Shown here: positions 2,236 through 59,045 of the stretch, piece after piece | Layout of the letters: every line of letters begins with the position of its first letter | Position numbering within the stretch: position 1 is the first letter of the stretch | Source of the DNA: Brevundimonas variabilis | Lineage (GTDB): Bacteria; Pseudomonadota; Alphaproteobacteria; Caulobacterales; Caulobacteraceae | Length of the DNA: 64,000 nucleotides | NCBI RefSeq assembly: GCF_014199945.1 | Contig: NZ_JACHOR010000003.1 | Span: forward strand, 248,001-312,000 | Direction: 5' to 3' | Position numbers and translations under genes: made by a program | Notes under the pieces: generated by a model | Seen by the model: the letters and a program-made list of their open reading frames with translations, nothing else | Database searches by the model: none | What the model was told of the DNA's origin: nothing

Positions 2236-4587
2236 GTGTCTGAACCCCTGCCCGCGCCCCGCATTTCCGACCTCGCGCGCTCGCGCGGCCCGGGCGGCGT
2301 GGACCAGGGCACCCCGGACTATCTGGCGGGTTTGAACCCGGAGCAGCGCGAGGCCGTGGAGACCACCGAGGGTCCCGTTCTCGTTCTTGCCGGCGCGGGG
2401 ACGGGCAAGACACGCGTCCTCACGACCCGTCTGGCGCACATTCTGGCCACCGGTCGGGCGCGTCCGTGGGAACTGCTGGTGGTCACCTTCACCAACAAGG
2501 CCGCCCGCGAAATGCGCGAGCGCATAACGGCCCTGATCGGGCCCTCGGCGGAGGGCCTGCGCTGGCTGGGCACATTTCACTCGGTCGCCGCACAGATCCT
2601 GAGACGCCACGCCGAACTGGTCGGCCTGAAATCCAGCTTCACGATTCTGGACACCGACGATCAGGAACGGCTGCTCAAGCAGTTGCTGGAGGCAGCCAAC
2701 ATTGACACCAAACGCTGGACGCCCAAGTCCCTTTCCGGCCTGATCGACCACTGGAAGAACCGTGGCTGGACGCCGGAAAAACTGCCGCCGTCAGAGGATT
2801 TCGCCAACGGAAAGGGTCACGCCCTTTACGCTGCCTATCAGGCAAGGCTGGCGACCCTCAACGCCTGCGACTTCGGCGACCTTCTGCTTCACAACCTGAC
2901 GATCCTGTCGAAACACGCCGATCTCGCCGAGGAGTATCGTCGGCGGTTCCGATACATCCTGGTCGACGAATACCAGGACACCAACGTCGCCCAGTATCTC
3001 TGGCTCCGGCTGTTGTCGTCCTCGACCGGAAATGTCTGCTGCGTCGGCGATGACGACCAGTCGATCTATGGCTGGCGGGGGGCCGAGGTCGACAACATCC
3101 TGCGCTTTGAAAAGGACTTTCCAGGCGCAAGGATCGTCAAGCTGGAGCGCAACTACCGTTCCACCAGCCACATCCTCGGCGCGGCCTCGGCCCTGATCTC
3201 CGCCAACAAGGATCGACTGGGCAAGACCCTGTGGACCGAGGACCAGAGCGGCGACAAGGTCCGTGTCCGCGGTGTCTGGGACGGTGAAGCAGAGAGTCGT
3301 CTGATCGCGGACGAGATCGAGACTGCCCGCCGTCCACACGCAGGCGAACCCGGCCTGAAATACAAGGACATGGCGGTCCTTGTTCGCGCATCCTTCCAGA
3401 TGCGGGCCTTCGAGGAGCGGTTCGTTCTGCTGGCTATTCCCTATGTCGTCATCGGTGGGCCGCGCTTTTTCGAGCGCGCCGAAATCCGCGATGCCCATGC
3501 CTATCTGCGGCTGATCCAGTCCGAGGATGACGATCTGGCCTTCGAGCGTATCGTCAATGTCCCCAAGCGGGGCATCGGCGAGACCAGCGTCCAGAAGATT
3601 CTGCAGATCGCGCGGCACAATGGTGTTTCGGCCATGACTGCCGTTCGCGACCTGATCACCTCGGACGAACTTCAGGCCCGCACACGCACCGCCCTGTCGA
3701 CCTTCGTGCGCGATTTCGATCGCTGGCGCGCTCTAGCGGCCGACACCCGCCACTGGTCCCTGACCGAGATCGTGCTGGAGGAGAGCGGCTATACCGACAT
3801 GCAGAAGGCCGACCGCACCACCGGCCAGACCCGCCTCGATAACCTCAAGGAACTGGTGCAGGCGATGCAGTCGTTCGAGACGCTGGGGGCCTATCTCGAG
3901 CACGTCTCTCTGGTCATGGACCTCGATCGCGGGGCTGGCGACGATGCCGTCCAGATCATGACGCTGCACGGGGCCAAGGGACTGGAGTTCCCGCTGGTCT
4001 TCCTGCCGGGCTGGGAGGAAGGCGTCTTCCCGTCACAGCGCAGCATCGACGAGAAAGGCGAAAAGGGCCTCGAGGAGGAACGCCGCCTGGCCTATGTCGG
4101 CGTGACACGAGCCAAGCAGGACGCGCGTATTTCCTTTGCCGCCAACCGCCTCGTCTATGGCCGATGGACCAGTCAGCTTCCCAGTCGTTTTGTCGACGAA
4201 CTGCCCATGGCCCACGTCGAGGCCGAGAGCGACACCGGCTATTACGGAGCCTCGGCGGGCATGAAGGAAGCCAAGTCCCGCTGGGACGACACCCCGGTGT
4301 TCGGCAGCGGCTATTCCTCACCGGGCTGGCAACGGGCCCAGGCCTATACCGCAAAGCAGAGCCCGACCGATCGTCCCGCCCGCAAGGCCCTGATCGAAGG
4401 CGAAGGCCGCCTGATCGCCACGGCCGACCCCAAGGCGGGCGGCAATTGGGCCAGGGGCGAGCGCGTGTTCCACCAGAAATTCGGCTACGGCAACGTCCGC
4501 GTCATCGAGGGCAACAAGCTGCTGATCGAATTCGAGAAGGCCGGCGAGAAGCGGGTGATCGACACCTTCGTCGAGAAGGTCACGTAA
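2236..4587 (+). CDS. uvrD: ATP-dependent DNA helicase UvrD/PcrA
   Basis: Superfamily 1A 3'-5' DNA helicase for nucleotide excision and mismatch repair. With the GTG start it has 783 residues. Visible motifs are the Q motif region (LNPEQREAV), Walker A AGAGTGKT (about 52-59), motif Ia VTFTNKAAREM, Walker B DEYQDTN (about 244), motif III GDDDQSIYGWRGA, motif IV with NYRST, motif V TLHGAKGLEFPLVFLPGWEEGVFP and motif VI EEERRLAYVGVTRAK. The C-terminal end (KFGYGNVRVIEG) is the PcrA/UvrD Tudor-like RNA polymerase interaction region. The GTG at 2236 leads straight into the family-like LPAPRISDLARSRG. In-frame ATGs at 2170 and 2194 would add a non-conserved tail. No clear SOS box was found upstream. 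Confidence 0.95.
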   Translation: MSEPLPAPRISDLARSRGPGGVDQGTPDYLAGLNPEQREAVETTEGPVLVLAGAGTGKTRVLTTRLAHILATGRARPWELLVVTFTNKAAREMRERITALIGPSAEGLRWLGTFHSVAAQILRRHAELVGLKSSFTILDTDDQERLLKQLLEAANIDTKRWTPKSLSGLIDHWKNRGWTPEKLPPSEDFANGKGHALYAAYQARLATLNACDFGDLLLHNLTILSKHADLAEEYRRRFRYILVDEYQDTNVAQYLWLRLLSSSTGNVCCVGDDDQSIYGWRGAEVDNILRFEKDFPGARIVKLERNYRSTSHILGAASALISANKDRLGKTLWTEDQSGDKVRVRGVWDGEAESRLIADEIETARRPHAGEPGLKYKDMAVLVRASFQMRAFEERFVLLAIPYVVIGGPRFFERAEIRDAHAYLRLIQSEDDDLAFERIVNVPKRGIGETSVQKILQIARHNGVSAMTAVRDLITSDELQARTRTALSTFVRDFDRWRALAADTRHWSLTEIVLEESGYTDMQKADRTTGQTRLDNLKELVQAMQSFETLGAYLEHVSLVMDLDRGAGDDAVQIMTLHGAKGLEFPLVFLPGWEEGVFPSQRSIDEKGEKGLEEERRLAYVGVTRAKQDARISFAANRLVYGRWTSQLPSRFVDELPMAHVEAESDTGYYGASAGMKEAKSRWDDTPVFGSGYSSPGWQRAQAYTAKQSPTDRPARKALIEGEGRLIATADPKAGGNWARGERVFHQKFGYGNVRVIEGNKLLIEFEKAGEKRVIDTFVEKVT

Positions 4588-5972
4588 CCGAGGACCATCG
4601 GCCCATCGAACCCTTCGTTAAGCACGATACGTCACCCTGCGCATCGTGACCCGCGCCCGCCCCGACCCCGACTTCAGCGAGCCCGCTCCGCCCCTGTGGG
4701 AACAGGTCGCGGCCCTGATCGTCCTGGTGATGCTGACCCAGGCGCTGATCGGACCCATCTTCGCACCCACCCAGGAAGAGACGCCGATCCTCCGCCTGGT
4801 CTGGTTGCCCATCTATGCCATCATCGCAGGCCTGTGCGTCTGGCGCTGGGAACGACTGGTGCGGGTCTGGCCGGCCGTCCTGATGCTGTTCCTGATGGTC
4901 CTGCATGCCTTTGCTTCGAAATACTGGTCCATCGATCCGGGCGTGACGCAGCGAAGGGTGATCGCCCTGGCCATCACCGGGGCCTTTTCGATCTATCTGG
5001 GAGCTGCGTTCCGGGGAGCCCACTTGCCGCGGCTGCTCATGATCGGCGGGCTGCTGATGGGGATCGGAAGCCTGGTCATGGTGTTCGCCTTCCCCGCAAT
5101 CGGGGTTCACCAGGCCGAGAATTTCGGGCTCTGGCGAGGCATCTGGTACGAGAAGAACCAGATGGGCATCGTCATGGTGGCGACCGGCACGGCGGCGGCT
5201 GCCGTGCTGGCGGCAAAGGATCGTCTTGACCCTGTCGCCCTGGTCACGATTGCCCTGTGCACAGGTCTCATGCTGATGACCCAGTCCAAGACCTCGCTGC
5301 TGTGCATGGTCATAGGACTCGGCGGCATCGGTGCGCTCTGGGCGATGCGCAAGGGCGGCGCGGCCTTTGCCATCGTCTGTATCTGGGTCGGCGTGATCCT
5401 GATGGCGACGGCAAGCTATCTGTTCATCACCAATCGCGAGCTCGTGCTGCAGGCATTGGGCAAGGACCCGACCCTGACCGGCCGGACTGACATCTGGGCG
5501 GCCCTGATGCGCATGGTCGATCAGCAACCCTGGACCGGGTTTGGCTACAGCGCCTTCTGGGGACGGGACTCGATCCCGGCCCTGATGATCCGTCAGGAGA
5601 CGCAATGGGCGGTGCCGAGTGCGCACAATGGCTGGATCGACCTGCTGGTCCAGCTGGGTTGGCCAGGAGCCCTTCTTGTGGGCGGGGTCATCGCGATCGC
5701 AGCGATCGGCACTGTGTTTCGTATTCCTGTCGCTGGCGCCCGCGAAGGCTATTTCAGCATCGCCTATCTAGTGCTCTTCGTGCTGCTGTCGCTGTCGGAG
5801 AGCGTGCTATTGAATCAGTCCAACCTGCCGTGGACGCTTCTGCTGGCGATCCTCGCGAGGGCACTGGCTCCGGAGCCGGAGCCGATCCGCACCCCGCAGC
5901 TTTATCGGCATCTTGCCGGTCGGACGAGACAGGCCTACCAACCCGGCTCCCGAATCGCCGCACAGTACGCCC

Positions 5973-8045
<2,073 letters not shown>

Positions 8046-8097
8046 CGGAACCGGATCGGCCCTGGCCGCGCTTCCGGCGTCCTACCGGAAGGCAAAC

Positions 8098-8691
8098 ATG
8101 TCCCAGACCGCCCTGATCCCGATCGAACTGTCCCCGCTCGAGGCGCGGGATTTCGATGCACCGCGCGTCTGCCTGACTGGCGAGGTCGACTACGCCATGT
8201 ATGACAAGTTTCGCGCCCAATGCGCTGCGGCACCGTGCGATGGGCTGATGGTCATCGAACTGTCGACCCTTGGCGGCGATCCGGAAGTCGCCCGGATGAT
8301 GGGCGAGGACATCCGCTATCAGAGCGAGCTGCACCCCGAACGTCGGATCGTCTTCCTTGGGAAGGCCGCCATTTATTCGGCTGGCGCAACCTTCATGAGC
8401 TTTTTTGCAAGGCCCAACCGCTATCTGACCCGGGGTACGCGGCTGATGATCCATGAGCGCAAGATGGACAAGACGCTGCAGATCGTCGGGCCGTTGACCA
8501 CCTGCATCGCCTCCGTTCGCGCCATGCTGCACGAACTGGAACACTCGATCATCATCCAGAACGAAGGCTTCGAGAACCTCATCAATGGTTCTGATGTGAC
8601 GATGGACGAAGTCCTGCGGCTCGCGCCATCGAACTGGTATCTGGAAGCGCAGGAAGCCCAGGCACGGGGGCTGATCGAAGGCGTGATCTGA
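8098..8691 (+). CDS. ClpP-like serine peptidase family protein with altered triad
   Basis: A 197-residue ClpP/crotonase-fold protein. The nucleophile region is AIYSAGATFMSFF (Ser94) and the histidine motif is LMIHE (His119), matching the ClpP order. Counting back from the terminal GLIEGVI, the position of the ClpP catalytic Asp is Asn in SNWYLEAQEAQARGLI, so activity may be reduced or use another arrangement. It has no signal peptide. It is 53 bp after parE and convergent with rcdA, whose product is a ClpXP adaptor in Caulobacter. It is shorter and more divergent than the housekeeping ClpP, so it is not that gene. Its role is unknown. Confidence 0.75.
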   Translation: MSQTALIPIELSPLEARDFDAPRVCLTGEVDYAMYDKFRAQCAAAPCDGLMVIELSTLGGDPEVARMMGEDIRYQSELHPERRIVFLGKAAIYSAGATFMSFFARPNRYLTRGTRLMIHERKMDKTLQIVGPLTTCIASVRAMLHELEHSIIIQNEGFENLINGSDVTMDEVLRLAPSNWYLEAQEAQARGLIEGVI

Positions 8692-8706
8692 TCCCAGGAG
8701 AGGCAG

Positions 8707-9213
8707 CTAGAGGCGGAAGGCCGCCTCAAGCAGGCCCATCTGGCTCAGCACCGGATTGACCTCGGGTTCGTCGGGCGCGTCCAGATACATGCGGCGGTCC
8801 AGATAGAGCACCCGGTCGAACAGCTTCTCGGCCCGTACGGTATATTCCACGAGGGCGATGGGCAGTTCGGGGTGGCTGGGTTGGGCGTCCAGTGGCCGCT
8901 CTGACAGGCGGTAGCGGGCATCGGCCGCAGCCTCGGGGGTCATGTCGCCTTCCCGGACAGCGCGCTGAACCAGCAACCAGGAAGCGACCTGCATCAGGCG
9001 CGTGGTAAGCTGCATGCTGTCGGCCGCGTAGGCAAGGGCCGCCGCTCTCGACAGCAGACGCGACTCGCGACGCCCATCGCCATCCAGATAGGCGGCCGTT
9101 TCCTCTACCAGATCCATGCCGTCCTGAAACGTACGCTCCAGCAGGGCCGATCGTGCAAAATCTCGGATCTCGCGAGCGCGGGCAGTCTCGGGCGGGGTCA
9201 ACGCGTCAGTCAT
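8707..9213 (-). CDS. rcdA: RcdA (DUF1465), regulator of CtrA degradation
   Basis: A 168-residue helical protein of the DUF1465 family, whose Caulobacter member RcdA links the CpdR-primed ClpXP protease to substrates such as CtrA during the cell cycle. The recognisable stretch runs from MTDALTPPETARAREIRDF through the helical core (ADSMQLTTRLMQVASWLLVQRAV) to YLDRRMYL. The family's three-helix bundle and disordered C-terminal tail fit the length. The ATG at 9213 is chosen because MTDALTPP is a natural family N terminus. MAMKDF at 9231 is an alternative. Confidence 0.85.
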   Translation of the reverse strand: MTDALTPPETARAREIRDFARSALLERTFQDGMDLVEETAAYLDGDGRRESRLLSRAAALAYAADSMQLTTRLMQVASWLLVQRAVREGDMTPEAAADARYRLSERPLDAQPSHPELPIALVEYTVRAEKLFDRVLYLDRRMYLDAPDEPEVNPVLSQMGLLEAAFRL

Positions 9214-9337
9214 GAAGTCCTTCATAGCCATGATTGGCTCGCTCGCCCATATCGTCCGGGCCAAAGCGTACCCGGACCGGATGGTCTGCAACGCCCGTGC
9301 CATGTCCCTGACAGGCGAAAAGACGTGTGCGGATCGT

Positions 9338-9544
9338 CTATTGTCCGAAATTGAACAGGGCGTCGGCCGCAGATTTCTTGGCCGACTTGGCCGCGATCGC
9401 GGCCCGGTCTCGCGCGATCTCGGCCTCGAGCGCCGCAATCCGCTCCGTCAGCTCTTCGACCGAATAAAGATCAAGATCTTCACGGCCAAGCGCCGCCAGG
9501 GCCGCCCCGCGCTGGGGACGCGGGTCCAGATCATCGAATGTCAT
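9338..9544 (-). CDS. DUF1192 family small coiled-coil protein
   Basis: A small protein (68 residues) starting MTFDDLDPRPQRG, with a heptad-like helix that includes SVEELTERIAALEAEIARD and ending ADALFNFGQ. This matches the DUF1192 family, which is restricted to Alphaproteobacteria and of unknown function. Two adjacent ATGs (9547 and 9544) are both possible. It is divergent from the quinone oxidoreductase gene, with 79 bp between the starts. Confidence 0.75.
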   Translation of the reverse strand: MTFDDLDPRPQRGAALAALGREDLDLYSVEELTERIAALEAEIARDRAAIAAKSAKKSAADALFNFGQ

Positions 9545-9623
9545 CATCGCCTCCGTCGTGGCCAGAGCCAGTCTCAATCCCTATCTCAACGCTTCGAAAG
9601 TCCAATTTGCAAGAAAGCCCGAC

Positions 9624-10601
9624 ATGCGTGTGATCGAGATCTCCGGAGGCTCCGGACCGGCGGAGGCGCTGATTGCAGGACAACGGCCGGATCCAGTGGC
9701 CGATCCGGGACAAGTGCGGGTCCGTGTTCGTGCGGCGGGCGTCAATCGTCCCGATATCTTCCAGCGTCTGGGCCGTTACCCGGCGCCTCCGGGGGCCTCT
9801 GACATTCTGGGGCTGGAGATTGCCGGGGAAATCGATCAGGTCGGAGCGGATGTCACGGACTGGAAGGTCGGAGACCGCGTCTGCGCCCTGCTGGGTGGCG
9901 GAGGGTATGCCGCGTTCGCGGTGGTGGACGCGCGGCACGTATTGGCGATCCCGAACGGGGTCGATTTTGTTCAGGCGGCCGCACTGCCCGAAACGGTCTT
10001 CACAGTCTTCACCAATGTGTTCGAGGCGGGGGCCTTGAAGGCCGGAGAAACCCTGCTGATCCATGGCGCCACCAGCGGCATAGGCGTGACCGCCATCCAG
10101 ATGGCCAAGGCAGCCGGTGCCCGGGTCATCGCCACCTCGAGAGGACCGGAGAAGACGGCAGCGGCGAAGGCACTGGGCGCCGACATCAGTCTGGATGCCC
10201 GATCCGACGATTTCGCCACCCGGATCGCCGAAGCCGGCGGCGTGGATGTGATCCTGGACATGGTCGCGTCGGACTATGCGGCCCTGAACCTGGAGGCTTT
10301 GAAACCCTTTGGCCGGTGGGTCGTGATCGCGACGCTGTCGGGGTCGAAGGCGGAAATCGATCTGGCCAAGGTCATGATGAAGCGGATCACCCTGACCGGT
10401 TCGACCCTGAGAGGTCGATCAGCCGATGAAAAGGCCCGGCTGACCCGGGCGGTTCGGGACACCGTCTGGCCCTGGGTCACCGCCGGTCTGGTCCGCCCAC
10501 CGGTCGAGGCGACCTTTCCGCTCGAACAGGCCGCTCTCGCCCACCTCCGGCTGGAAGCAGGCGAGCACATTGGCAAGATCGTGCTGACGCTGGATCAGTA
10601 G
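9624..10601 (+). CDS. NAD(P)H quinone oxidoreductase (zinc-independent MDR, PIG3 type)
   Basis: A 325-residue medium-chain dehydrogenase/reductase. The N-terminal GroES-like domain has AAGVNRPDIFQRLGRYPAPPGASDILGLEIAGEI, characteristic of the TP53I3/PIG3 quinone reductase group. The cofactor domain has HGATSGIGVTAIQMAKAAGARV. The zinc-binding cysteines of alcohol dehydrogenases are absent. The reaction is probably NAD(P)H-dependent reduction of quinones or other electrophiles. The ATG at 9624 gives MRVIEISGG, the normal family N terminus. Its 3' end overlaps the convergent secreted-protein gene by 7 bp. Confidence 0.85.
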   Translation: MRVIEISGGSGPAEALIAGQRPDPVADPGQVRVRVRAAGVNRPDIFQRLGRYPAPPGASDILGLEIAGEIDQVGADVTDWKVGDRVCALLGGGGYAAFAVVDARHVLAIPNGVDFVQAAALPETVFTVFTNVFEAGALKAGETLLIHGATSGIGVTAIQMAKAAGARVIATSRGPEKTAAAKALGADISLDARSDDFATRIAEAGGVDVILDMVASDYAALNLEALKPFGRWVVIATLSGSKAEIDLAKVMMKRITLTGSTLRGRSADEKARLTRAVRDTVWPWVTAGLVRPPVEATFPLEQAALAHLRLEAGEHIGKIVLTLDQ

Positions 10602-11206
10602 CGGCCGCGCAGGGGCCTGAGCGACGAAATCCGGTCGTTCATGCCCCAGCGGTCCAGATTGCGAACATCATTGCTGAACACCTGGCATTGCCCCCGGAAG
10701 TTGGAGTCGGTGCAGGCTTCCCATTCCCCGCGGAACGTCATGGAGCTGACCGCATCGTTGAGACCGGTGCTGCCCAGGTTGGGCACAGCGCCCTGGAATG
10801 TGGCCTGCTCACCCCGGAAATTGGCGTCACGATAGAGCGTGATGGAGTTGCGCCCGCCGTTGAAACCGCCGCCGTTGCCCCAGTCTGGCCGGTCATCCCC
10901 ACCGGGCCGCCCGGGCCGTCCCCCATCCTCGAAATCGCCGCGCTGGCCGTTGCAGACCAGCAGGCCGTTGTCATTGCCGATGTCGCTGTCCGAACAACGG
11001 TTCAGCTGGATAGAGGACTCGCGCACATTGCGCCGGGTGTCCCTGCAATCGGCATACAGGCGCCCCTGGTTCACATAGGCCCCTGTGCAGCTCTGCTGAT
11101 AGCTGCCGCGCGGCGCGCCACGCTGCTGGGCTTCTGCCGTCTGAGGCACACTGGCAAGACCTGCCATCAGGGCCAGTCCGGCGGTTGCGACGATGATCGA
11201 TTTCAT
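10595..11206 (-). CDS. Secreted CVNH plus beta/gamma-crystallin domain protein
   Basis: A 203-residue exported protein with a Sec signal of about 26 residues (MKSIIVATAGLALMAGLASV, ending TAEA). The first domain (about 30-90) has SYQQSCTGAYV and IQLNRC with paired cysteines, the pattern of the cyanovirin-N (CVNH) fold. A Gly/Pro/Asp-rich linker (about 92-118) follows. The last part is a beta/gamma-crystallin domain with ITLYRDANFRGEQATFQG and ACTDSNFRGQCQVFS Greek-key motifs. Such domains bind carbohydrate and calcium respectively, so a surface or periplasmic role is plausible but unproven. A 212 bp divergent intergenic region separates it from trcR. Confidence 0.75.
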   Translation of the reverse strand: MKSIIVATAGLALMAGLASVPQTAEAQQRGAPRGSYQQSCTGAYVNQGRLYADCRDTRRNVRESSIQLNRCSDSDIGNDNGLLVCNGQRGDFEDGGRPGRPGGDDRPDWGNGGGFNGGRNSITLYRDANFRGEQATFQGAVPNLGSTGLNDAVSSMTFRGEWEACTDSNFRGQCQVFSNDVRNLDRWGMNDRISSLRPLRGRY

Positions 11207-11418
11207 GGCGATGACTCCCTCTCCCACACTTCCATAGTGCGTCTGAAAGACCAGTGTTTACCAGTCCGCATGAACCGTGGCTGTACGGCGTCGTCGGGGA
11301 TCGTTTTCTTTTGCGCCAAAGCGGACTATAGAACGACCATCGCGCCCGGCCGAAAGGTCGGGCGCCGCCGTTTCCAGCGCCCTGTTCCGGGCTGAATCAA
11401 TCTTCGGGAATTACGCCC

Positions 11419-12084
11419 ATGACCGACATCCTCATGCCCAAGGCCACTGCGGTCTGGATGGTGGACAATACGTCGCTGACCTTTGACCAGATTGCAGATT
11501 TCTGTGGCCTGCACCCCCTCGAAGTCCGTGGCATCGCCGACGGCGACGTCTCGCGCGACATCCGCGGGGTCGATCCGATCACCGGCGGCCAGCTGACCCG
11601 CGAGGAGCTGGACAAGGCCCAGGCGGACGAGAGCTATCGTCTCAAAGCCATCGTCAGCCGCCATGCCGAGCTGCTGAAAGTTACTAAGGCTCCGCCGAAA
11701 TATACCCCGGTCTCGCGTCGCCAGGATCGCCCTGACGCCATCATGTGGTTCGTCAAGAACCACCCCGAAGTGACCGACGCCCAGATCGCCAAATTGCTGG
11801 GCACCACCAAGTCCACCATCGAAAGCGTGCGCAACCGCACCCACTGGAACAGTCCGCAGATCAAGCCGGTCGATCCCGTGACCCTGGGCCTCGTCGGGCA
11901 ACTGGCGCTGGACGATCTGGTGTCCAAGGCGGCGGCCAAGAAGAACAAGGACGATCTCAAGAAGAGCGGGGGCACTATCCAGCCCGTCGACGAGACACCG
12001 GCCGAGCCGGAGTTCGTGCCGGAAGAGCGCGAGCGCCGCGGCGCGGAGCCAACAGCCGCCTCGGTCTTCGGCACCGGAAACTGA
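11419..12084 (+). CDS. trcR: Cell-cycle transcriptional regulator TrcR (DUF1013)
   Basis: A 221-residue protein of the DUF1013 family, named TrcR in Alphaproteobacteria. The conserved opening (MTDILMPKATAVWMVDNTSL) and the helix-turn-helix region (VTDAQIAKLLGTTKSTIESVRNRTHWN, about residues 116-142) are clear. The C-terminal third is Lys/Glu-rich and probably disordered. The family is associated with cell-cycle transcription through direct contact with RNA polymerase. I recall this from family naming, and it is not shown by the sequence. A strong hairpin follows at 12092-12119. Confidence 0.85.
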   Translation: MTDILMPKATAVWMVDNTSLTFDQIADFCGLHPLEVRGIADGDVSRDIRGVDPITGGQLTREELDKAQADESYRLKAIVSRHAELLKVTKAPPKYTPVSRRQDRPDAIMWFVKNHPEVTDAQIAKLLGTTKSTIESVRNRTHWNSPQIKPVDPVTLGLVGQLALDDLVSKAAAKKNKDDLKKSGGTIQPVDETPAEPEFVPEERERRGAEPTAASVFGTGN

Positions 12085-12091
12085 AACGAAA

Positions 12092-12119
12092 ACGGCCCCG
12101 GGATCACTCCCGGGGCCGT
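12092..12119. terminator. Bidirectional stem-loop terminator between trcR and a YdcH gene
   Basis: Perfect 12-bp stem (ACGGCCCCGGGA paired with TCCCGGGGCCGT) with a 4-nt loop TCAC. It starts 8 bp after the trcR stop and ends 20 bp from the stop of the convergent YdcH gene. The flanks have A-rich sequence on the left and TGGTTT on the right, so it could serve both genes. The T tract is short. Confidence 0.75.
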
Positions 12120-12139
12120 CTGGTTTCGGTCCGGACCCG

Positions 12140-12313
12140 CTAGTGGGCGCGGCTCTCGAGACTGGTGATTTCTTCCTTCAGCCTGAGCTTTCGTCGTTTC
12201 AGCTCCCTGACTTGAAGCGGGTCCACGGACGGTCTGTTCACTTCCTGCCGGATCACCGTGTCCAGTTGGCGATGACGGTTTCCCAGTTCGCGGATTCGGG
12301 CTTCGATGGTCAT
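12140..12313 (-). CDS. YdcH-like (DUF465) small helical protein
   Basis: A 57-residue protein (MTIEARIRELGNRHRQLD...) with the DUF465 pattern: an N-terminal helix, then P-S-V-D-P-L-Q-V-R-E-L-K-R-R-K-L-R-L-K-E-E-I. These proteins form a helical hairpin of unknown function. A second DUF465 gene lies at 13560. An ATG at 12328 would extend it by five residues. Confidence 0.75.
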   Translation of the reverse strand: MTIEARIRELGNRHRQLDTVIRQEVNRPSVDPLQVRELKRRKLRLKEEITSLESRAH

Positions 12314-12428
12314 GGCTTGCGCCTCCATGTCTAACGGACGAAGGTAGAGAGCGCCGGACCTGACCGACTGTAGAATCACATTTCAGTGATTGCCGATCAG
12401 CGCCGACCCACAGAGACTGACCCCCAAT

Positions 12429-13055
12429 ATGGACCATGATGTGAACGGAGCCGTACGCAACTCCAACCCACGGATTGTGGTCGGGATTTCCGGCGCATCT
12501 GGAGTGATCTACGGAGTTCGGGTGCTGGATGCGCTGAAGGAGCTGGGGGTCGAGAGCCATCTGGTCGTGACCCGCGCCGCCCTCCTGACCCTGTCGCAGG
12601 AAACCGATCTCGGCCCGGATGATCTGACCGGGCGGGCGTCGGTGGTCCACAAGCTGGCCGATGTCGGAGCCACGATCGCTTCCGGATCGTTCCGGACCCT
12701 GGGCATGATCGTCGCACCCTGCTCGGTCAAGACGATGAGCGAGATCGCTACCGGCGTGACCTCGACCCTGCTGACCCGGGCGGCGGACGTGGTGCTGAAG
12801 GAGCGGCGGCCGCTGGTCCTGATGGTGCGCGAGACCCCGTTCCACCTTGGGCATCTGCGCACGATGACCGCTCTGGCGGAAATGGGGGCCACCATCGCCC
12901 CGCCCCTTCCCGCCTTCTATTCGCGCCCGAAATCGATCGACGACATGGTCGACCAGTCGGTCGGACGGGCACTGGACGCTTTCGGGCTCGACTGGTCTGC
13001 GGTCAGGCGCTGGGAGGGCCTCAACGGTCCGGCGGCCGCGGGAGCCGCAGCATGA
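12429..13055 (+). CDS. ubiX: UbiX flavin prenyltransferase
   Basis: Makes prenylated FMN from FMN and dimethylallyl phosphate for the UbiD decarboxylase of ubiquinone synthesis. The 208 residues include RIVVGISGASGVIYGVRVL (flavin-binding first strand and loop), the APCSVKTMSEIATG motif and RRPLVLMVRETPFHLGHL, all diagnostic. UbiD is not in this window. The stop overlaps the next ATG as ATGA, so the TIGR02444 gene is translationally coupled. The start at 12429 gives a slightly long N terminus (MDHDVNGAVRNSNP) before the flavin fold. Confidence 0.93.
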   Translation: MDHDVNGAVRNSNPRIVVGISGASGVIYGVRVLDALKELGVESHLVVTRAALLTLSQETDLGPDDLTGRASVVHKLADVGATIASGSFRTLGMIVAPCSVKTMSEIATGVTSTLLTRAADVVLKERRPLVLMVRETPFHLGHLRTMTALAEMGATIAPPLPAFYSRPKSIDDMVDQSVGRALDAFGLDWSAVRRWEGLNGPAAAGAAA

Positions 13056-13519
13056 AGACCCTTTGGGACTGGTCGTCCGAGGTCTATTCCGCCCCGGGTG
13101 TGGCCGAGGCCTGTCTGCACCTTCAGGACGAGGCCGGCCAGAATGTACCGCTGCTGCTCTGGGCGGCCTGGATGGCAAGAACCGGACGGTCTGCGGATGC
13201 CGACACGCTGGAGGCCGCCTGCGACATGGCCCGGGCCTGGACGGACACCACCATCGTGCCGCTGCGGGTCATCCGTCGTGCCATCAAGAGCCCGATCCCC
13301 GACATGGGGGACCTGGCCCGCGAGCTGATCCGGGACCGCATCAAGGCTGTCGAACTGGAGGCCGAAAAACATCTTCTGGCCGCGCTCGAACAGCTCGCCC
13401 CGCCTCCCGATGGCGCGCCGAAGCCCGCGATCGACGGGCTGGTCGACACGGCGCGCCTCTGGTCCCGTGTCGTTCCACGTCCCGCCCTGACTGCGCTCGC
13501 CGAGCGCCTTCCGGCCTGA
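13052..13519 (+). CDS. TIGR02444/DUF2390 family protein
   Basis: A 155-residue soluble protein with the family motifs LWDWSSEVYSAPGVAEACLHLQD and VPLLLWAAWMA near the N terminus. The function of the family is unknown. It overlaps ubiX by 4 bp (ATGA), so the two are very probably co-translated. This hints at, but does not prove, a link to prenyl-flavin or quinone metabolism. A second short gene follows after 40 bp. Confidence 0.75.
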   Translation: MKTLWDWSSEVYSAPGVAEACLHLQDEAGQNVPLLLWAAWMARTGRSADADTLEAACDMARAWTDTTIVPLRVIRRAIKSPIPDMGDLARELIRDRIKAVELEAEKHLLAALEQLAPPPDGAPKPAIDGLVDTARLWSRVVPRPALTALAERLPA

Positions 13520-13559
13520 ACCCAGCTGAGCTATAGGGACCGCGCGTCCGGGGCTGACC

Positions 13560-13784
13560 ATGAACGACGACCAACCGATACTGACCGATGAAGAGATCGC
13601 CCTTCAGGCACAGCTGAAACTGCTGCGGGTCGAGCATGCCGACCTGGAGGCCTCAATTGAAGCGCTCAGCCATATGCCGATCCCCGACCAGCTGCTGATT
13701 GCCCGGCTCAAGCGCAAGAAGCTTGTGCTGCGCGACGAGATCGTGAAGGTCGAGGATCAGCTGCTGCCCGACATCATCGCCTGA
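13560..13784 (+). CDS. YdcH-like (DUF465) small helical protein
   Basis: A 74-residue protein with two helices (EIALQAQLKLLRVEHADLE and IARLKRKKLVLRDEIVKVED) around a M-P-I-P-D turn, the DUF465 hairpin pattern. It is the second such gene within 1.5 kb. The basic L-K-R-K-K-L-x-L-x-D-E-I segment aligns with L-K-R-R-K-L-R-L-K-E-E-I of the gene at 12140. Probably the end of the ubiX operon. Confidence 0.75.
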   Translation: MNDDQPILTDEEIALQAQLKLLRVEHADLEASIEALSHMPIPDQLLIARLKRKKLVLRDEIVKVEDQLLPDIIA

Positions 13785-13790
13785 GCGGAT

Positions 13791-14354
13791 CTAGCGGCCG
13801 CGCTTGCGAACCCACATCGCGGCATCAGCCTCGGCCATCCAGGCTTCGGCATCCATCTGACCGCTCCAGACCCGGATGCCAAAGGATCCTCCCAGCTTTG
13901 CCGTCTCGCCGCCCCAGGTGAAGCCGTCCCGCTCGAGCGTCTCGGTCAGGCGCCGGGCCTTTTCCCGTCCCGCTTCCAGACCCGCATTGAGCATCACCAG
14001 CCCAAACTCGTCACCGCCCAGCCGCCCCACGGCATCGCTCTCGCGCACATTGGCCATCAGCAGATTGGCCACATGGATCAGGGCCGCATCCCCGGCGGCG
14101 TGGCCAAGGGTGTCGTTGACCCCCTTGAATCCGTCCAGATCCAGATAGAGCAGCACAGCCTGGGAGCCATAACGCGTGCAGAAGGCCATGGTCCGGTTCA
14201 GTGCCTGCACGAAGCCGCGACGGTTCAGGGCCGGCGTCAGGACGTCGTGATCCGCGGCCGCTTCCGCCGCCTCGGCGCGCTGTCGCAAGGCCTCGACCTC
14301 GGCGCGCAGGCGCTCGAGCTCGGCATGCAGGTCGAGAGTGGCCAGGTCGGTCAC
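13791..14354 (-). CDS. GGDEF diguanylate cyclase, short form
   Basis: A 187-residue protein: an N-terminal coiled coil ([19 protein letters not shown], about 12-32) and a GGDEF domain. The signature is intact ([11 protein letters not shown]). An inhibitory I-site RxxD (RESD) lies five residues before GGDEF, so product inhibition is expected. D[17 protein letters not shown] carries the metal and substrate residues. There is no sensory or membrane domain, so partner proteins or dimerisation through the coiled coil may control it. It converts two GTP to cyclic di-GMP. It is convergent with the ubiX operon and divergent from purE. Confidence 0.88.
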
Positions 14355-14478
14355 AGGGGGGAACGGCTCCGGAAGGACCGCGACTCAATCCAGCGCGATA
14401 GGCCATATGCTAACGCCGTCTGTTGCGGGCGCAACGCGCGTGCTGTATCGCGCCGCTTTCCCGCGAAAGGCGACGCTG

Positions 14479-14985
14479 ATGGCGACGGTCCTTCCTCCGC
14501 AGAGTTCGCCCCCCGTGGCGATCATCATGGGCAGTCGATCCGACTGGCCCACAATGAAGCACGCGGCCGAAACTCTGGACCGGCTGGGCGTGGCCTGGGA
14601 GGCCAAAGTGGTCTCGGCCCATCGCACGCCACAACGCCTGTATGATTTCGCCAACGGCGCAAAGGCAGCCGGTTTCAAGGTCGTCATCGCCGGTGCCGGC
14701 GGTGCCGCCCATCTGCCGGGCATGGCGGCATCCATGACCGACCTGCCCGTGCTCGGTGTTCCGGTGCAGTCCAAGGCGCTGAGCGGGCTCGATTCGCTGC
14801 TGTCGATCGTCCAGATGCCCGGGGGGATCCCGGTCGCGACCCTGGCCATCGGCGAGGCGGGAGCCAAGAATGCCGGCATTCTGGCGGCCCAGATCCTGGC
14901 GCTGTCGGACGAGACCCTGGCCGGACGGCTGACCGCCTTCCGTGAGGCCCAGACCGAGGCCGTGCACGAAACCGTCGAGGACTGA
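14479..14985 (+). CDS. purE: N5-carboxyaminoimidazole ribonucleotide mutase PurE
   Basis: Class I PurE of de novo purine synthesis, converting N5-CAIR to CAIR. The 168 residues have [12 protein letters not shown] (phosphate loop), [14 protein letters not shown] (catalytic His) and [16 protein letters not shown] with [28 protein letters not shown]. The ATG at 14479 gives [12 protein letters not shown] before the fold. Only 2 bp separate its stop from the TTG start of purK, the partner enzyme, so they form an operon. Confidence 0.95.
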
Positions 14986-14987
14986 GA

Positions 14988-16085
14988 TTGCCGACCCTGC
15001 CGCTTTCTCCCGGTTCGACCATCGGCATCCTGGGCGGGGGCCAGCTGGGCCGGATGCTGAGCCAGGCGGCCTCGCGACTGGGCTTCGACGTCGTCATTCT
15101 CGATCCGGAGGAGAACAGCCCGGCCGGTCGCGTCTCCCGCGGCCAGATCGTGGCGGAATACGATGATCCCACGGCCCTGACGGTACTCGGCCGGGTCTGC
15201 GATGTCGTGACCTTCGAGTTCGAGAATGTGCCCGCCGCGTCGATCGAGCGGCTGGCCGAGGCCGGGGCGCTGGTGGCTCCGGGACCAACCGCCCTGGCCG
15301 TGGCGCAGGACCGGGTCGACGAGAAGACCTTCCTGAATGCCGTGGGGGCCACCACCGTCGACTTCGTCGCCGTGGACACGCTGGACGACCTGACGGCGGC
15401 CATTCAGCATTTGGGGACGCCGTCCCTGCTGAAGACACGACGCGAGGGCTATGACGGCAAGGGTCAGGTCTGGATACGGGATGCGGCCGAAGCCGAGGCG
15501 GCTTTCGAGGCCATCGCCGGCCGCCCGGCCATTCTGGAAGCCCGGGCGGCCTTCACGCGCGAACTGTCCATTATCGCGGCGCGCAGCCAGTCCGGCGAGA
15601 TTGCAGTCTATCCGCTGGGCGAGAACACCCATACCAAAGGGGTGCTGAAGACGACCCTCGCCCCCGCCGTCACCGACGCCGCCACCGATGCCCGGGCCCG
15701 GGAGATCGCCGAGGCCATTCTGGACGGGCTGGACTATGTTGGGGTGCTGGGCGTCGAACTGTTCGACATCCCGGGGCAGGACGGACAGGCGGGTGGGCTG
15801 CTTGTCAACGAGATCGCGCCCCGGGTCCACAACACCGGCCACTGGACGCAGGACGGCTGTGGCTGCGACCAGTTCGAACAGCACATCCGCGCCATCACTG
15901 GCTGGCCTCTGGGGGCTACGGCGGCCCACGCCCGCGTCGAGATGACGAACCTGCTGGGCGACGAGATCGATCAGTGGACGAACCTGTCAGCCGAGCCCGA
16001 TGTCCGGCTTCACCTCTACGGCAAGACCGAAGCCCGGCCGGGCCGCAAGATGGCGCATGTGAACCGGGTCAGGTCGCTGGCCTGA
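14988..16085 (+). CDS. purK: N5-carboxyaminoimidazole ribonucleotide synthetase PurK
   Basis: ATP-grasp enzyme making N5-CAIR from AIR, bicarbonate and ATP, feeding PurE. The 365 residues have the nucleotide fold IGILGGGQLGRML, the FEFENVP segment, the ATP-grasp region RREGYDGKGQ and the metal-binding NEIAPRVHNTGHWT. TTG is the only sensible start given the 2 bp spacing from purE. The downstream COQ9 gene is convergent. Confidence 0.95.
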   Translation: MPTLPLSPGSTIGILGGGQLGRMLSQAASRLGFDVVILDPEENSPAGRVSRGQIVAEYDDPTALTVLGRVCDVVTFEFENVPAASIERLAEAGALVAPGPTALAVAQDRVDEKTFLNAVGATTVDFVAVDTLDDLTAAIQHLGTPSLLKTRREGYDGKGQVWIRDAAEAEAAFEAIAGRPAILEARAAFTRELSIIAARSQSGEIAVYPLGENTHTKGVLKTTLAPAVTDAATDARAREIAEAILDGLDYVGVLGVELFDIPGQDGQAGGLLVNEIAPRVHNTGHWTQDGCGCDQFEQHIRAITGWPLGATAAHARVEMTNLLGDEIDQWTNLSAEPDVRLHLYGKTEARPGRKMAHVNRVRSLA

Positions 16086-56313: not shown

Positions 56314-56386
56314 GTCGGCTGGCAATCTACGCGTTTCCTCACACCGCTGAAAAACCTACGGTACTTCTGCTTAACCACGACCCTGA

Positions 56387-56454
56387 CCCGGCAAATCCTG
56401 CCGAAATTGCGGTTCACCCGGCAAAAACTGCCGGGCACCCGGCAAGTCCTGCCG
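56387..56454. promoter_or_regulatory. Three ftr-type FlbD enhancer sites
   Basis: Three copies of a CCCGGCA-N5/6-TGCCG palindrome: CCCGGCAAATCCTGCCG (56387-56403), CCCGGCAAAAACTGCCGGG (56417-56435) and CCCGGCAAGTCCTGCCG (56438-56454). They lie about 100-170 bp upstream of the sigma-54 promoter start, the usual enhancer distance, and resemble the Caulobacter ftr elements bound by FlbD. Confidence 0.65.
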
Positions 56455-56581
56455 CTTCCGCATCGCGAGTCGCCCGCCCTGACGACCCGATCGCGGATCG
56501 GAGCTCACGAAAAAACAGTCTTGATCGTCCTGATCGTCCTGTTCTTCCTGGTCGGGACCAGCCGCCCCTGGATCGGCCCCG

Positions 56582-56965
56582 TCACGGATAGTGTCTCCGG
56601 TCGAGTTCGAAATGCGGCCCGTCGCGCAGACGGGGCCAGTCGCCGCCCCAGACGATCGGCACGCCAGCCCTGACGGCCGCCGTCTTGAAGGCAGCGGCGA
56701 TGCGCGGATACAGCGGCCAGTCCCAGCGCAGATGGCCGTCGACCACGGCGGCGACGTCCACTGCATGCCCGGTCAGATGCCGGCTGTTCAGGGTCCGCGA
56801 GGCGCCGCTGCGGACCAGGGCCGACTGTCGCTTGGCGTCTCTCAGACCTTCGGTGACGATGAAGTCGACGGGGGTCAGGGCGATCGCCGCCTCGACGACC
56901 GCGACAAGATCGGGATGGACCCCCTTCATTCGGGCACGGGATCGGTTGGACAGGCGAAAGCTCAT
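56582..56965 (-). CDS. M15-family endolysin (peptidoglycan peptidase)
   Basis: A 127-residue peptidase of the M15 (VanY/phage L-Ala-D-Glu or D-Ala endopeptidase) type. The zinc ligands are S-R-H-L-T-G-H-A-V-D-V (His and Asp) and G-P-H-F-E-L (last His). The opening NRSRARMKGVHPDLVAVVEAA is typical of phage endolysins. It has no signal peptide, so it needs a holin, encoded directly upstream with a 4-bp overlap. It is the last gene of a four-gene cassette. Confidence 0.8.
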   Translation of the reverse strand: MSFRLSNRSRARMKGVHPDLVAVVEAAIALTPVDFIVTEGLRDAKRQSALVRSGASRTLNSRHLTGHAVDVAAVVDGHLRWDWPLYPRIAAAFKTAAVRAGVPIVWGGDWPRLRDGPHFELDRRHYP

Positions 56966-57237
56966 GGCCGTCCCCCCGTCCCGAGCCGCAGCTTCAGATT
57001 GGCCAGCAACTCGACCAGTTGCTGGGCCGTCGGCGCGACGAGATAAATCACCAGCACGAGAGCCTGCAGCCCCATCAGCCCCTCGGCGATCGCGGGCAGA
57101 TGGCCGGGCTCGGCCCGCCGCACGACGAAGACCAGCAGGGTCCAAAGACCCAGGCTGACGGTGAACACATACAGGCGTCGCCACAGCCAGCGGCCTTCGA
57201 CCAAGGGGGAAACGCTGTCAGGTCCGGGTTCGGTCAT
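56962..57237 (-). CDS. Holin-like small membrane protein
   Basis: A 91-residue protein with two membrane helices (RLYVFTVSLGLWTLLVFVV, and AEGLMGLQALVLVIYLVAPT) separated by a short loop, and a basic C terminus (NLKLRLGTGG). Size, topology and coupling to an endolysin gene (ATGA overlap) point to a class II-type holin. The sequence family is not recognised, so the role is by context. Confidence 0.6.
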   Translation of the reverse strand: MTEPGPDSVSPLVEGRWLWRRLYVFTVSLGLWTLLVFVVRRAEPGHLPAIAEGLMGLQALVLVIYLVAPTAQQLVELLANLKLRLGTGGRP

Positions 57238-57425
57238 TCGTCATCCTCCGATCGATCAAGGTGGGGCAGGGTCTGGCGGCCAGCGGGGCAAAGGCCGTCG
57301 CGGGGATCCTGCGGGCCGAGCTGCCACGGACAGTCCTGGATCTCGAGGTCCAGCAGGGCCGGTCCGGGGTCACTGAGACGGGGATGCCAGGGTGAGCGGT
57401 CCGGGTGTCTGCGGCGCCCGGTCAT
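57234..57425 (-). CDS. Small Cys/Trp-containing protein in phage-like cassette, unknown function
   Basis: A 63-residue protein with no recognised domain. It has two cysteines (DCPWQLG and LCPAG) in a pattern that resembles the C-terminal metal-type motif of GcrA-like proteins (C-x-W-x-L-G...C), but the match is short. It overlaps both neighbours by 4 bp (ATGA), so it is translated between the tail-fibre-like protein and the holin. Confidence 0.5.
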   Translation of the reverse strand: MTGRRRHPDRSPWHPRLSDPGPALLDLEIQDCPWQLGPQDPRDGLCPAGRQTLPHLDRSEDDE

Positions 57426-58903
57426 CCGAAAGCCGTGATACGGACGAAGCCCGCGCCGCCCCTGCCGCCGGGTCCCGGGACGGTCGTGCCCGCCCCGCCA
57501 CCGCCGCCGCCCGAGCCTGTCGTACCATCGCCGCCCGCATGACCGGGGCCGTACGCATTTGCGCCGCCCCCGCCACCGCCACCCGAAGCACCGAGCCCAA
57601 GGTCCGGGGCCCCGCCGCCGGCCGCTCCAGGCGCTCCCGTGCCACCCCCGCCGCCGCTGGCCGAGCGGCCCAGCACACTGCCAGCGCCCCCAGGCCCTCC
57701 CGATCGCGCCGTCGCCGCGCCGTCCAGCCCGCCCCCTCCCCCGCCGCCGCCGGGTCCGACGGGGCAGATCAGGCTGTGACCGGCCGATGCCGTCGTCGCG
57801 ACCGAGGAGCCACCCCCACCGTTGGCCAGCATGGTCCCGCGGCCACCGGCCCCGCCGGGACCGCCCGCCGCGGTTCCGCCGCTGCCGCCAAGGCCGCCAT
57901 GAGCGGTCAGGAGAACCACACCGCCGCTGGCAACGGTGGTGGAGGTGCCATCGCCGCCGTCCGCGCCAACGACTGAGCCACCGGTTCCCCCGGGACCGAT
58001 CGTGACCGTCAGGGGACCGGCGAGGCTGGTCAGGTCCCAGTGCGCCGTCGAAACGCCACCCGCCCCGCCGCCACCGCCGCCGAACCGGATGCCCGAGGAT
58101 GAAGCTGCACCGGCGCCGCCGCCGCCACCACCGCCCACGGCCAGAACCTCCAGTCGCCGGGCCCAGGGGGGCAGGGTCACGCGCTCACTGGCCTTCAGCG
58201 TCGTGGTCTCGACCCGGGTCGCTCCCCGCTCGAACCGGACAGCGCCCGTCGCCGGATCGACAGCGAGGGCCTCGTGCCAGTGGAGACCGTCCGGGCTGAC
58301 CTTGAGCCGGAAACTGTCATCGCCGAGCAGGCCGAATTCGGCGCGCCCGCTGTATCCGCTCTGGAACAGGAACGAGAGCGTGTCCCCGACGCCCTCCTTG
58401 TTCCAGGCGATGCGCAGATCGCCGTTGCCGCCCGAGGCCGAGTCGATGGCTGTCCACAGGGCGTCGTTCAGCCGTGCGGCAAAGGGATTCCCTGAATCCG
58501 CTTCGGTGTTCACGCCCAGACGGGTCAGGTTCTGGGCCACGTCCGCCTTGTCGACCGGCAGAGGCGTCCATCGCCCGCCGCGATGGACGAGGGCTGCAGG
58601 CGGAACGAGGACAAGGACGATCATCCCCTCCACCGGAGGGACCAGGGTCCATCCACCGCCCCCGGCACGGACCAGATCGCCAGCCTTGCGCGATGACCAG
58701 TCGGCCCCGGTCGCGCCCTCGGGCAGGATATAGAGATGGCCTTCGGTCGGCCGTGCGGGCTGCGCCTTCAGCGTCCGGGTGACGACGGTTGTCTGGACCA
58801 AGGCATCGAGCCGGGTCAGGGCCTCGTTCAGGGTGACGTGTTTCTGAAGCTGGCCCGCCGCCAGATAAGGCAGGTTGAGCCGGGACGAGGCCTGGGTGGA
58901 CAT
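57422..58903 (-). CDS. DUF2793 tail-fibre-like protein with glycine-rich tip
   Basis: A 493-residue protein. Residues 1-170 match DUF2793, seen in phage and gene-transfer-agent tail fibres: RLNLPYLAAGQLQKHVTLNE, LDALVQTTV and a GHLYILPEGATG segment. Residues 170-250 form a beta-rich part (SFRLKVSPDGLHWHEAL). From about 255 to the end the chain is more than 40% Gly in GGGGGG and GGAGG blocks and ends GGRGGAGFVRITAFG. Such tips form polyglycine bundles that bind host receptors. It is the first gene of the cassette. No packaging, portal or capsid genes are near. Confidence 0.8.
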   Translation of the reverse strand: MSTQASSRLNLPYLAAGQLQKHVTLNEALTRLDALVQTTVVTRTLKAQPARPTEGHLYILPEGATGADWSSRKAGDLVRAGGGGWTLVPPVEGMIVLVLVPPAALVHRGGRWTPLPVDKADVAQNLTRLGVNTEADSGNPFAARLNDALWTAIDSASGGNGDLRIAWNKEGVGDTLSFLFQSGYSGRAEFGLLGDDSFRLKVSPDGLHWHEALAVDPATGAVRFERGATRVETTTLKASERVTLPPWARRLEVLAVGGGGGGGAGAASSSGIRFGGGGGGAGGVSTAHWDLTSLAGPLTVTIGPGGTGGSVVGADGGDGTSTTVASGGVVLLTAHGGLGGSGGTAAGGPGGAGGRGTMLANGGGGSSVATTASAGHSLICPVGPGGGGGGGGLDGAATARSGGPGGAGSVLGRSASGGGGGTGAPGAAGGGAPDLGLGASGGGGGGGANAYGPGHAGGDGTTGSGGGGGGAGTTVPGPGGRGGAGFVRITAFG

Positions 58904-59045
58904 GGACGATCTCCGTGGATGACGAAGATCAGTGTCCGTGTCGGTGGACCTCAGGCGCGGCGGAGACCACGAGAATCCTCCCGCCCCCTGATAATCCGGG
59001 GGTTCTGACGGATCATCCGGTGGAATACAGGGGCGTAGCCCGAAT

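What the first reader, a model, noticed from the sequence alone, without database searches (positions are those of the whole stretch)
56582..58903. Four-gene phage/GTA-like cassette: tail fibre, unknown small protein, holin, endolysin
All four genes overlap by exactly 4 bp (ATGA), so they are one translationally coupled unit encoding recognition (DUF2793 with glycine-rich tip) and lysis (holin, M15 endolysin). No capsid, portal, terminase or integrase lies near. In Rhodobacter-type gene transfer agents, tail-fibre and lysis genes sit apart from the main cluster. This could be a satellite locus of a domesticated particle, or a remnant prophage used as a lysis or killing module.
Basis: partly seen in the sequence, partly recalled or inferred. 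Interest (0 to 1): 0.65.

Follow-up and report, generated by a model that had tools for sequence, protein, structure and literature searches.

The report
Gene-transfer-agent tail fibre and lysis operon
Beside the tail-fibre gene of a domesticated virus-like particle, Brevundimonas bacteria keep a small set of cell-bursting genes that probably opens the cell to release the particles, a job that its well-studied cousin Caulobacter crescentus does in another way.

Summary
The four overlapping genes are real. The genome carries an RcGTA-like head-tail cluster on another contig. The first gene belongs to the GTA tail-fibre family DUF2793; then come a conserved small acidic protein, a two-TM holin-like protein and an M15 endolysin. 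A strong endolysin match occurs in 110 of 131 Brevundimonas genomes. In 24 of 25 long loci the operon lies between the same upstream gene and flagellin genes. In 63 of 69 loci a spanin-like gene follows; all 25 complete copies enclose a lipoprotein-type frame. This is a phage-type lysis cassette; the window's copy lacks the spanins. C. crescentus is reported to lack holin/endolysin and to lyse through LypABC (PMC13236601); LypB was found in 0 of 40 Brevundimonas. In some relatives other lytic enzymes sit behind the fibre. Best reading: a GTA accessory locus that releases particles by phage-type lysis. Nothing was measured. The link is not strict: genomes with a broken GTA often keep the cassette, and three with a full-length hub gene lack the endolysin there.

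The parts
58904..58937 (-). Leader inverted repeat over the Shine-Dalgarno of the DUF2793 gene (GGAG at about 58911-58914)
   Evidence: Predicted hairpin, -16.2 kcal/mol, all 4 SD bases paired; a paired SD in 55 of 57 Brevundimonas leaders against 60 of 99 control gene starts. Function inferred; covariation not decisive
57422..58903 (-). DUF2793 protein with glycine-rich C-terminal half, 493 aa: GTA tail fibre family
   Evidence: PF10983 E=5.8e-22, PF21722 1.5e-10; tail-fibre assignment of DUF2793 from PMC10883770
57234..57425 (-). Small acidic protein, 63 aa, function unknown; conserved in place across the genus
   Evidence: Small ORF in 68 of 70 Brevundimonas loci; pooled dN/dS 0.18 over 14 close pairs of relatives. 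The window's own copy is a divergent member (read by eye)
56962..57237 (-). Holin-like protein, 91 aa, two hydrophobic segments
   Evidence: Hydropathy; relatives in 36 of 40 Brevundimonas of the family sample; no Pfam match. 'Holin' rests on place, size and topology
56582..56965 (-). M15 peptidase, 127 aa: endolysin (L-Ala-D-Glu or D-Ala-D-Ala peptidase type)
   Evidence: PF13539 E=4.1e-11, PHROG 465 endolysin E=1.2e-56; motif SxHxxGxAxD and a C-terminal H-F/W-E/Q in 70 of 70 relatives

Best explanation
This is an accessory locus of the Brevundimonas gene transfer agent. It makes the tail fibre of the particle and, from the same overlapping operon, the proteins that break open the producing cell: a holin to open the inner membrane, an M15 peptidase to cut peptidoglycan and, in most species, Rz/Rz1-type spanins to disrupt the outer membrane. 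Placing lysis behind the tail fibre would tie cell bursting to a structural gene, and a leader hairpin over the fibre's ribosome-binding site could delay the unit. Shown here by sequence: gene content, order, conservation, common chromosomal place, purifying selection, co-occurrence of DUF2793 and GTA, spanin-like genes in relatives, no LypB match in the genus sample. Inferred: activity of each lysis protein, co-regulation with the GTA, the hairpin acting in RNA. The role of the small protein is unknown; lysis regulator or fibre chaperone are guesses.
For: GTA cluster in the same genome. DUF2793 is the RcGTA tail fibre and co-evolves with GTA genes; the C. crescentus tail-fibre homologue is induced together with its GTA. 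DUF2793 in 40 of 40 Brevundimonas of the family sample. Endolysin strong match in 110 of 131. EEP-like gene upstream and flagellin downstream in 24 of 25 long loci. Spanin-like frame overlapping the endolysin by 4 nt in 63 of 69, lipobox frame inside in 25 of 25 complete copies, Rz-like spanin by PHROGs in 3 of 4 tested. Catalytic motifs 70 of 70. In R. capsulatus tail fibre and lysis genes rise with the GTA, and GafA binds the lysis promoter (passages of PMC6363796). LypB in 0 of 40 Brevundimonas.
Against: No expression, lysis or particle data. Several genomes whose GTA cluster is broken keep the cassette. G222, G210 and G276 have a full-length hub gene, but flagellin follows the holin region and no strong M15 match exists. 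G083, G092 and G282 have other genes behind DUF2793, and G174 shows no lysis gene there. The window's copy lacks spanins. The holin has no family match. No shared upstream motif with the main GTA cluster was found.
Confidence: 0.72

Rival explanations
1. The holin-endolysin-spanin part serves a purpose independent of GTA particles (programmed lysis, release of DNA or vesicles, killing); only its neighbour, the tail fibre, belongs to the GTA.
For: Cassettes with open frames persist in several genomes with broken GTA clusters, for example G183, G289, G143, G107, G270. G255 has small protein, holin, endolysin and spanin-like gene but no DUF2793 match.
Against: Broken clusters still hold several GTA genes, so the losses may be recent; three of these genomes have lesions in the cassette: G288, G155, G189. 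The cassette is tied to the fibre gene by overlaps in most loci.
Confidence: 0.14
2. Remnant of a prophage or recent phage debris.
For: Each recognised part is of phage type; weak holin-like matches exist in Caulobacter phages beside tail genes.
Against: Common chromosomal place in 24 of 25 long loci; strong endolysin match in 110 of 131 genomes; dN/dS about 0.26 for the endolysin and 0.18 for the small protein; no holin relative in viral contigs by the pattern scan.
Confidence: 0.05
3. The M15 protein is a particle-borne or entry peptidase that helps the tail fibre during DNA delivery, not a release enzyme.
For: It is encoded in the operon of the tail fibre; in G263 the enzyme behind the fibre matches a baseplate-hub/tail-lysozyme PHROG (phrog_1259, E=7.6e-30).
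Against: A membrane protein before it and overlapping Rz/Rz1-like frames after it is the order of a lysis cassette.
Confidence: 0.06

Closest known systems
RcGTA accessory loci of Rhodobacter capsulatus (tail fibre rcc00171 and a GafA-bound lysis cassette)
   Same: DUF2793 tail fibre outside the head-tail cluster; holin-endolysin type release
   Different: Here fibre and lysis genes share one overlapping operon; the endolysin is M15 type; the GTA_holin_3TM family (PF11351) is absent from the genus sample. That the R. capsulatus fibre and lysis genes lie apart is recalled
CcGTA of Caulobacter crescentus with LypABC
   Same: Related GTA cluster and a distal tail-fibre gene
   Different: C. crescentus is reported to have no holin/endolysin and to need LypABC (PMC13236601); Brevundimonas has the cassette and no LypB match
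Gram-negative phage lysis cassette (holin, endolysin, Rz/Rz1)
   Same: Gene order, overlaps, and a lipoprotein frame inside the Rz-like gene in relatives
   Different: Chromosomal, at one place in the genus, with a small acidic protein before the holin; the window's copy lacks the spanins

Membership tests
RcGTA-like GTA accessory tail-fibre locus | DUF2793 tail-fibre homologue outside the head-tail cluster | tested here: met
   PF10983 E=5.8e-22 on contig C3, GTA cluster on C4
RcGTA-like GTA accessory tail-fibre locus | RcGTA-like head-tail cluster in the same genome | tested here: met
   TIGR02218 over its cut-off; the other cluster genes are named by recall from sequence and found in order in relatives
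RcGTA-like GTA accessory tail-fibre locus | Co-regulation with the GTA cluster | tested here: inconclusive
   No shared upstream motif found with one matrix; expression not testable here
Phage-type lysis cassette | Endolysin with intact catalytic residues | tested here: met
   PHROG 465; motifs in 70 of 70 relatives, which include the frameshifted G155 read in the aligned frame
Phage-type lysis cassette | Holin: small membrane protein next to the endolysin | tested here: inconclusive
   Two hydrophobic segments, overlap with the endolysin, but no holin family match
Phage-type lysis cassette | Spanins (Rz/Rz1) in the same unit | tested here: not met
   Absent from the window's copy; spanin-like frame in 63 of 69 relatives' loci counted (window included)
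LypABC (CARD-NLR-like) GTA lysis system | LypB homologue in the genome | tested here: not met
   LypB of G130 by the genome search: 0 of 40 Brevundimonas, own genome included; PF01223 absent from own genome
GTA_holin_3TM | PF11351 match | tested here: not met
   91-aa protein has no Pfam match; PF11351 in 9 of 199 genomes, own genome and genus not among them

The most novel reading that the evidence does not exclude
In Caulobacteraceae GTAs the position behind the tail-fibre gene is a conserved lysis slot that has held unrelated phage-type modules (M15, GH24, Tlde1, CHAP-like, with or without spanins), tied to the fibre by overlapping genes and gated by a leader hairpin over the fibre's ribosome-binding site, so that a late structural gene switches on lysis. 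LypABC would be a later substitute in a few Caulobacter-like genomes whose slot is empty.
Probability: 0.38. Interest if true: 0.68.

Novelty: new variant of a known kind. Interest (0 to 1): 0.52.

Why it matters
How GTA particles leave the cell outside Rhodobacter is open, and became a sharper question when C. crescentus was shown to need an immunity-like system. This locus is a concrete, genus-wide candidate for phage-type release in the related genus Brevundimonas, testable by simple deletions. It suggests that LypABC is the exception: a clear LypB match in 5 of 95 family genomes that have the GTA marker TIGR02218. It also shows that the window alone would hide the spanins that complete the cassette in most relatives.

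Tried and rejected
Prophage debris: rejected on place, selection and distribution.

Shared promoter motif with the main GTA cluster: a matrix from 43 leaders gave five scattered hits (scores 13.1-14.7) on 17 stretches of or near the cluster, below most training scores.

Leader as RNA hairpin: pairing is 79.6% of cells against at most 51.9% when slid, and 0 of 500 shuffles reach it; but two-sided changes (17 cells) are no more than in slid versions (up to 34), further pair types are not unusual (104 of 500 shuffles), RNAalifold returned no structure, and 60 of 99 control gene starts also pair their Shine-Dalgarno. I keep it as likely, not proved.

Phage source of the holin: six phage records at E up to 0.01, 27-32% identity, beside tail or hypothetical genes in the two read; none in viral contigs. 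Plasmids: no DNA match to part of the G127 operon.

Small protein: no Pfam or NCBIfam match, and in PHROGs one weak match for one of the relatives tried (E=0.027). Structure prediction and fold search were not run.

Strict link of cassette and intact GTA: expected, only partly found. Of 40 Brevundimonas in the family sample, holin and TIGR02218 occur together in 30, holin only in 6, TIGR02218 only in 3, neither in 1. The 'neither' genome, G097, is probably an assembly break: its hub is full length and its contig ends inside the holin.

Full report
Observation. Pfam names the first DUF2793 plus a glycine-rich domain and the last Peptidase_M15_4; PHROGs names the last endolysin. The two middle proteins have no useful family match.

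Where it lies. The window is part of contig C3 of a 3.4-Mb genome. The genus is Brevundimonas: a scan of named genomes with a 12-row holin alignment found 90 relatives and kept 80, most titled Brevundimonas, the rest Caulobacteraceae, Caulobacterales, alphaproteobacterial or unnamed assemblies and one labelled Bordetella. That genus g22 is Caulobacter is my inference.

The GTA. Contig C4 holds frames that I name terminase, portal, protease, capsid, tail genes and a 1250-aa hub (names recalled from sequence; only TIGR02218 was tested by family), in order, next to DnaJ-like, aminotransferase-like and purA-like genes that are also neighbours in relatives. Of 131 Brevundimonas genomes 126 have some match to the hub, fragments included. 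DUF2793 is listed as the RcGTA tail fibre and co-evolves with GTA genes (PMC10883770, passages). C. crescentus induces ccna_02456, a homologue of the R. capsulatus tail-fibre gene, with its GTA (PMC9632790, passages); C. vibrioides carries a PF10983 match (control). In 199 Caulobacteraceae, TIGR02218 and DUF2793 are both present in 90, both absent in 88, TIGR02218 alone in 5, DUF2793 alone in 16; relatedness makes these dependent.

The cassette in the genus. The endolysin has a match with E at most 1e-50 somewhere in 110 of 131 genomes, the holin a match in 36 of 40 of the family sample. I read cassette loci of 72 places in the genus, chosen by me, not at random. In 24 of 25 loci of 15 kb or more an EEP-like gene lies upstream and flagellin genes downstream; the exception is the second M15 locus of G285. 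DUF4112-like was not detected in 5 of the 24, and the sigma/anti-sigma pair is variable (these gene names are recalled). The same EEP-like, DUF4112-like, DUF2793 order is seen in G068 of another genus, g14 (by eye). The small ORF is present in 68 of 70 loci. Over 14 close pairs, which share genomes, pooled dN/dS is 0.18, with pN/pS 2.27 and 1.54 in the other two frames; two pairs (G002-G254, G024-G270) show little or no constraint on their own. Endolysin motifs are intact in 70 of 70, and median dN/dS is about 0.26.

Spanins. In 63 of 69 loci with at least 150 nt downstream, a frame overlapping the endolysin stop by 4 nt encodes a protein with an N-terminal hydrophobic segment. Of these, 25 are complete and 38 run off the stretch held; all 25 complete ones contain in the +1 frame a short protein with a lipobox. 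PHROGs calls three of four tested 'Rz-like spanin' (E 6e-6 to 1.5e-4; the fourth gave nothing); Pfam gives no spanin match to the two tested. The window's genome, G058, G117, G131, G238 and G267 lack the frame. So the usual form is DUF2793, small protein, holin, endolysin, Rz, Rz1, and the window has a shortened one.

Other enzymes in the slot. GH24 lysozymes lie behind the fibre in G161 (g22), G011 (g11) and G028 (g12) by Pfam and, read by eye, in G150 and G176. G199 has a Tlde1-domain protein and a spanin-like protein there, but no hub match. G263 has a weak CHAP match that PHROGs groups with tail lysozymes. A 159-170 aa protein with hydrophobic segments (phrog_6637, unknown function) follows in g14 and g2 genomes read. 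In 23 of 26 g22 loci an exporter-like gene follows and no lysis-like frame was seen. In the four g20 genomes read a carboxylase-like gene follows; these four carry GTA_holin_3TM elsewhere, as a separate lysis locus would predict.

Caulobacter comparison. PMC13236601 (passages, sections 7 and 13) reports no holin/endolysin in C. crescentus and lysis through LypABC. I found a lypABC-like operon in G130 through PF01223 (2 of 5 genomes searched; frames) and searched its LypB in 199 genomes: 8 matches, two of them marginal fragments, none in the 40 Brevundimonas.

Results against the reading. Genomes with broken GTA clusters often keep the cassette, three of them with lesions: G288, G155, G189. G222, G210 and G276 have a full-length hub but no endolysin behind the holin. 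G083, G092, G282 and G174 show no lysis gene behind DUF2793; G083 has an M15 with a spanin-like gene elsewhere. G255 has the lysis part but no DUF2793 match. The association is strong, not strict.

Leader. An inverted repeat covers the Shine-Dalgarno of the fibre gene: at least 3 of 4 bases paired in 55 of 57 leaders, mean z -3.05, against 60 of 99 control starts. Start codons were chosen partly by presence of a Shine-Dalgarno. Pair counts favour the helix, covariation does not decide. In other genera a hairpin is seen near the same place by eye, not always over the Shine-Dalgarno.

In print. Searches (open-access papers only) listed no title or abstract on lysis genes of a Brevundimonas GTA. 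Of the papers listed I opened seven and saw passages, with two sections of one; most listed papers were not opened, so this is not proof. Papers seen as passages: PMC13236601 (sections in 19, 20), PMC9632790, PMC10883770, PMC11150451, PMC6363796, PMC11409702, PMC9662315.

Conclusion. The finding is a real accessory locus of a domesticated virus-like particle: tail fibre plus phage-type lysis cassette in one operon. The parts are of known kinds; the arrangement, and this release route for the genus, I did not find described.

Noticed in passing
L003 about 3100-15460 (G000:C4): In the window's genome about 12 kb of other genes (CheW- and chemoreceptor-like frames among them, names recalled) lie between the GTA protease and capsid genes; in four relatives read the gap is about 0.2 to 4 kb.
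   Followed up: no
L106-L117, L119, L120: In 14 of 15 loci with damaged GTA clusters the 3' end of the hub gene remains beside the DnaJ-like gene. The loci were picked through hub matches, so the count is biased.
   Followed up: partly
window 58904-58937: Leader inverted repeat over the tail-fibre Shine-Dalgarno, seen in 55 of 57 relatives; a possible translational gate.
   Followed up: partly
L084:7117-7901 (G000:C5:295520): A second M15 gene (66% identical) in the window's genome, followed by an overlapping single-TM protein; similar M15 copies (67%) in G195 and G171.
   Followed up: partly
window 56380-56475: Repeated CGGCA..TGCCG inverted repeats between endolysin and flagellin gene; they recall flagellar ftr sites (recalled, not tested).
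   Followed up: no
G000:C4:167327-167725 (L237): A DUF6456 (PF20057) match, E=2.2e-44; I recall this family from GTA activators of the GafA type, but the papers opened do not name it.
   Followed up: no
L225 (G255): Small protein, holin, endolysin and spanin-like gene directly behind a sigma/anti-sigma pair, with no DUF2793 match in the genome.
   Followed up: no
L179 (Caulobacter phage Kronos 23069-23416): A weak holin-like match (32%) lies between a fibronectin-type tail gene and a tail-fibre gene, so a similar fibre-lysis neighbourhood may exist in phages.
   Followed up: partly
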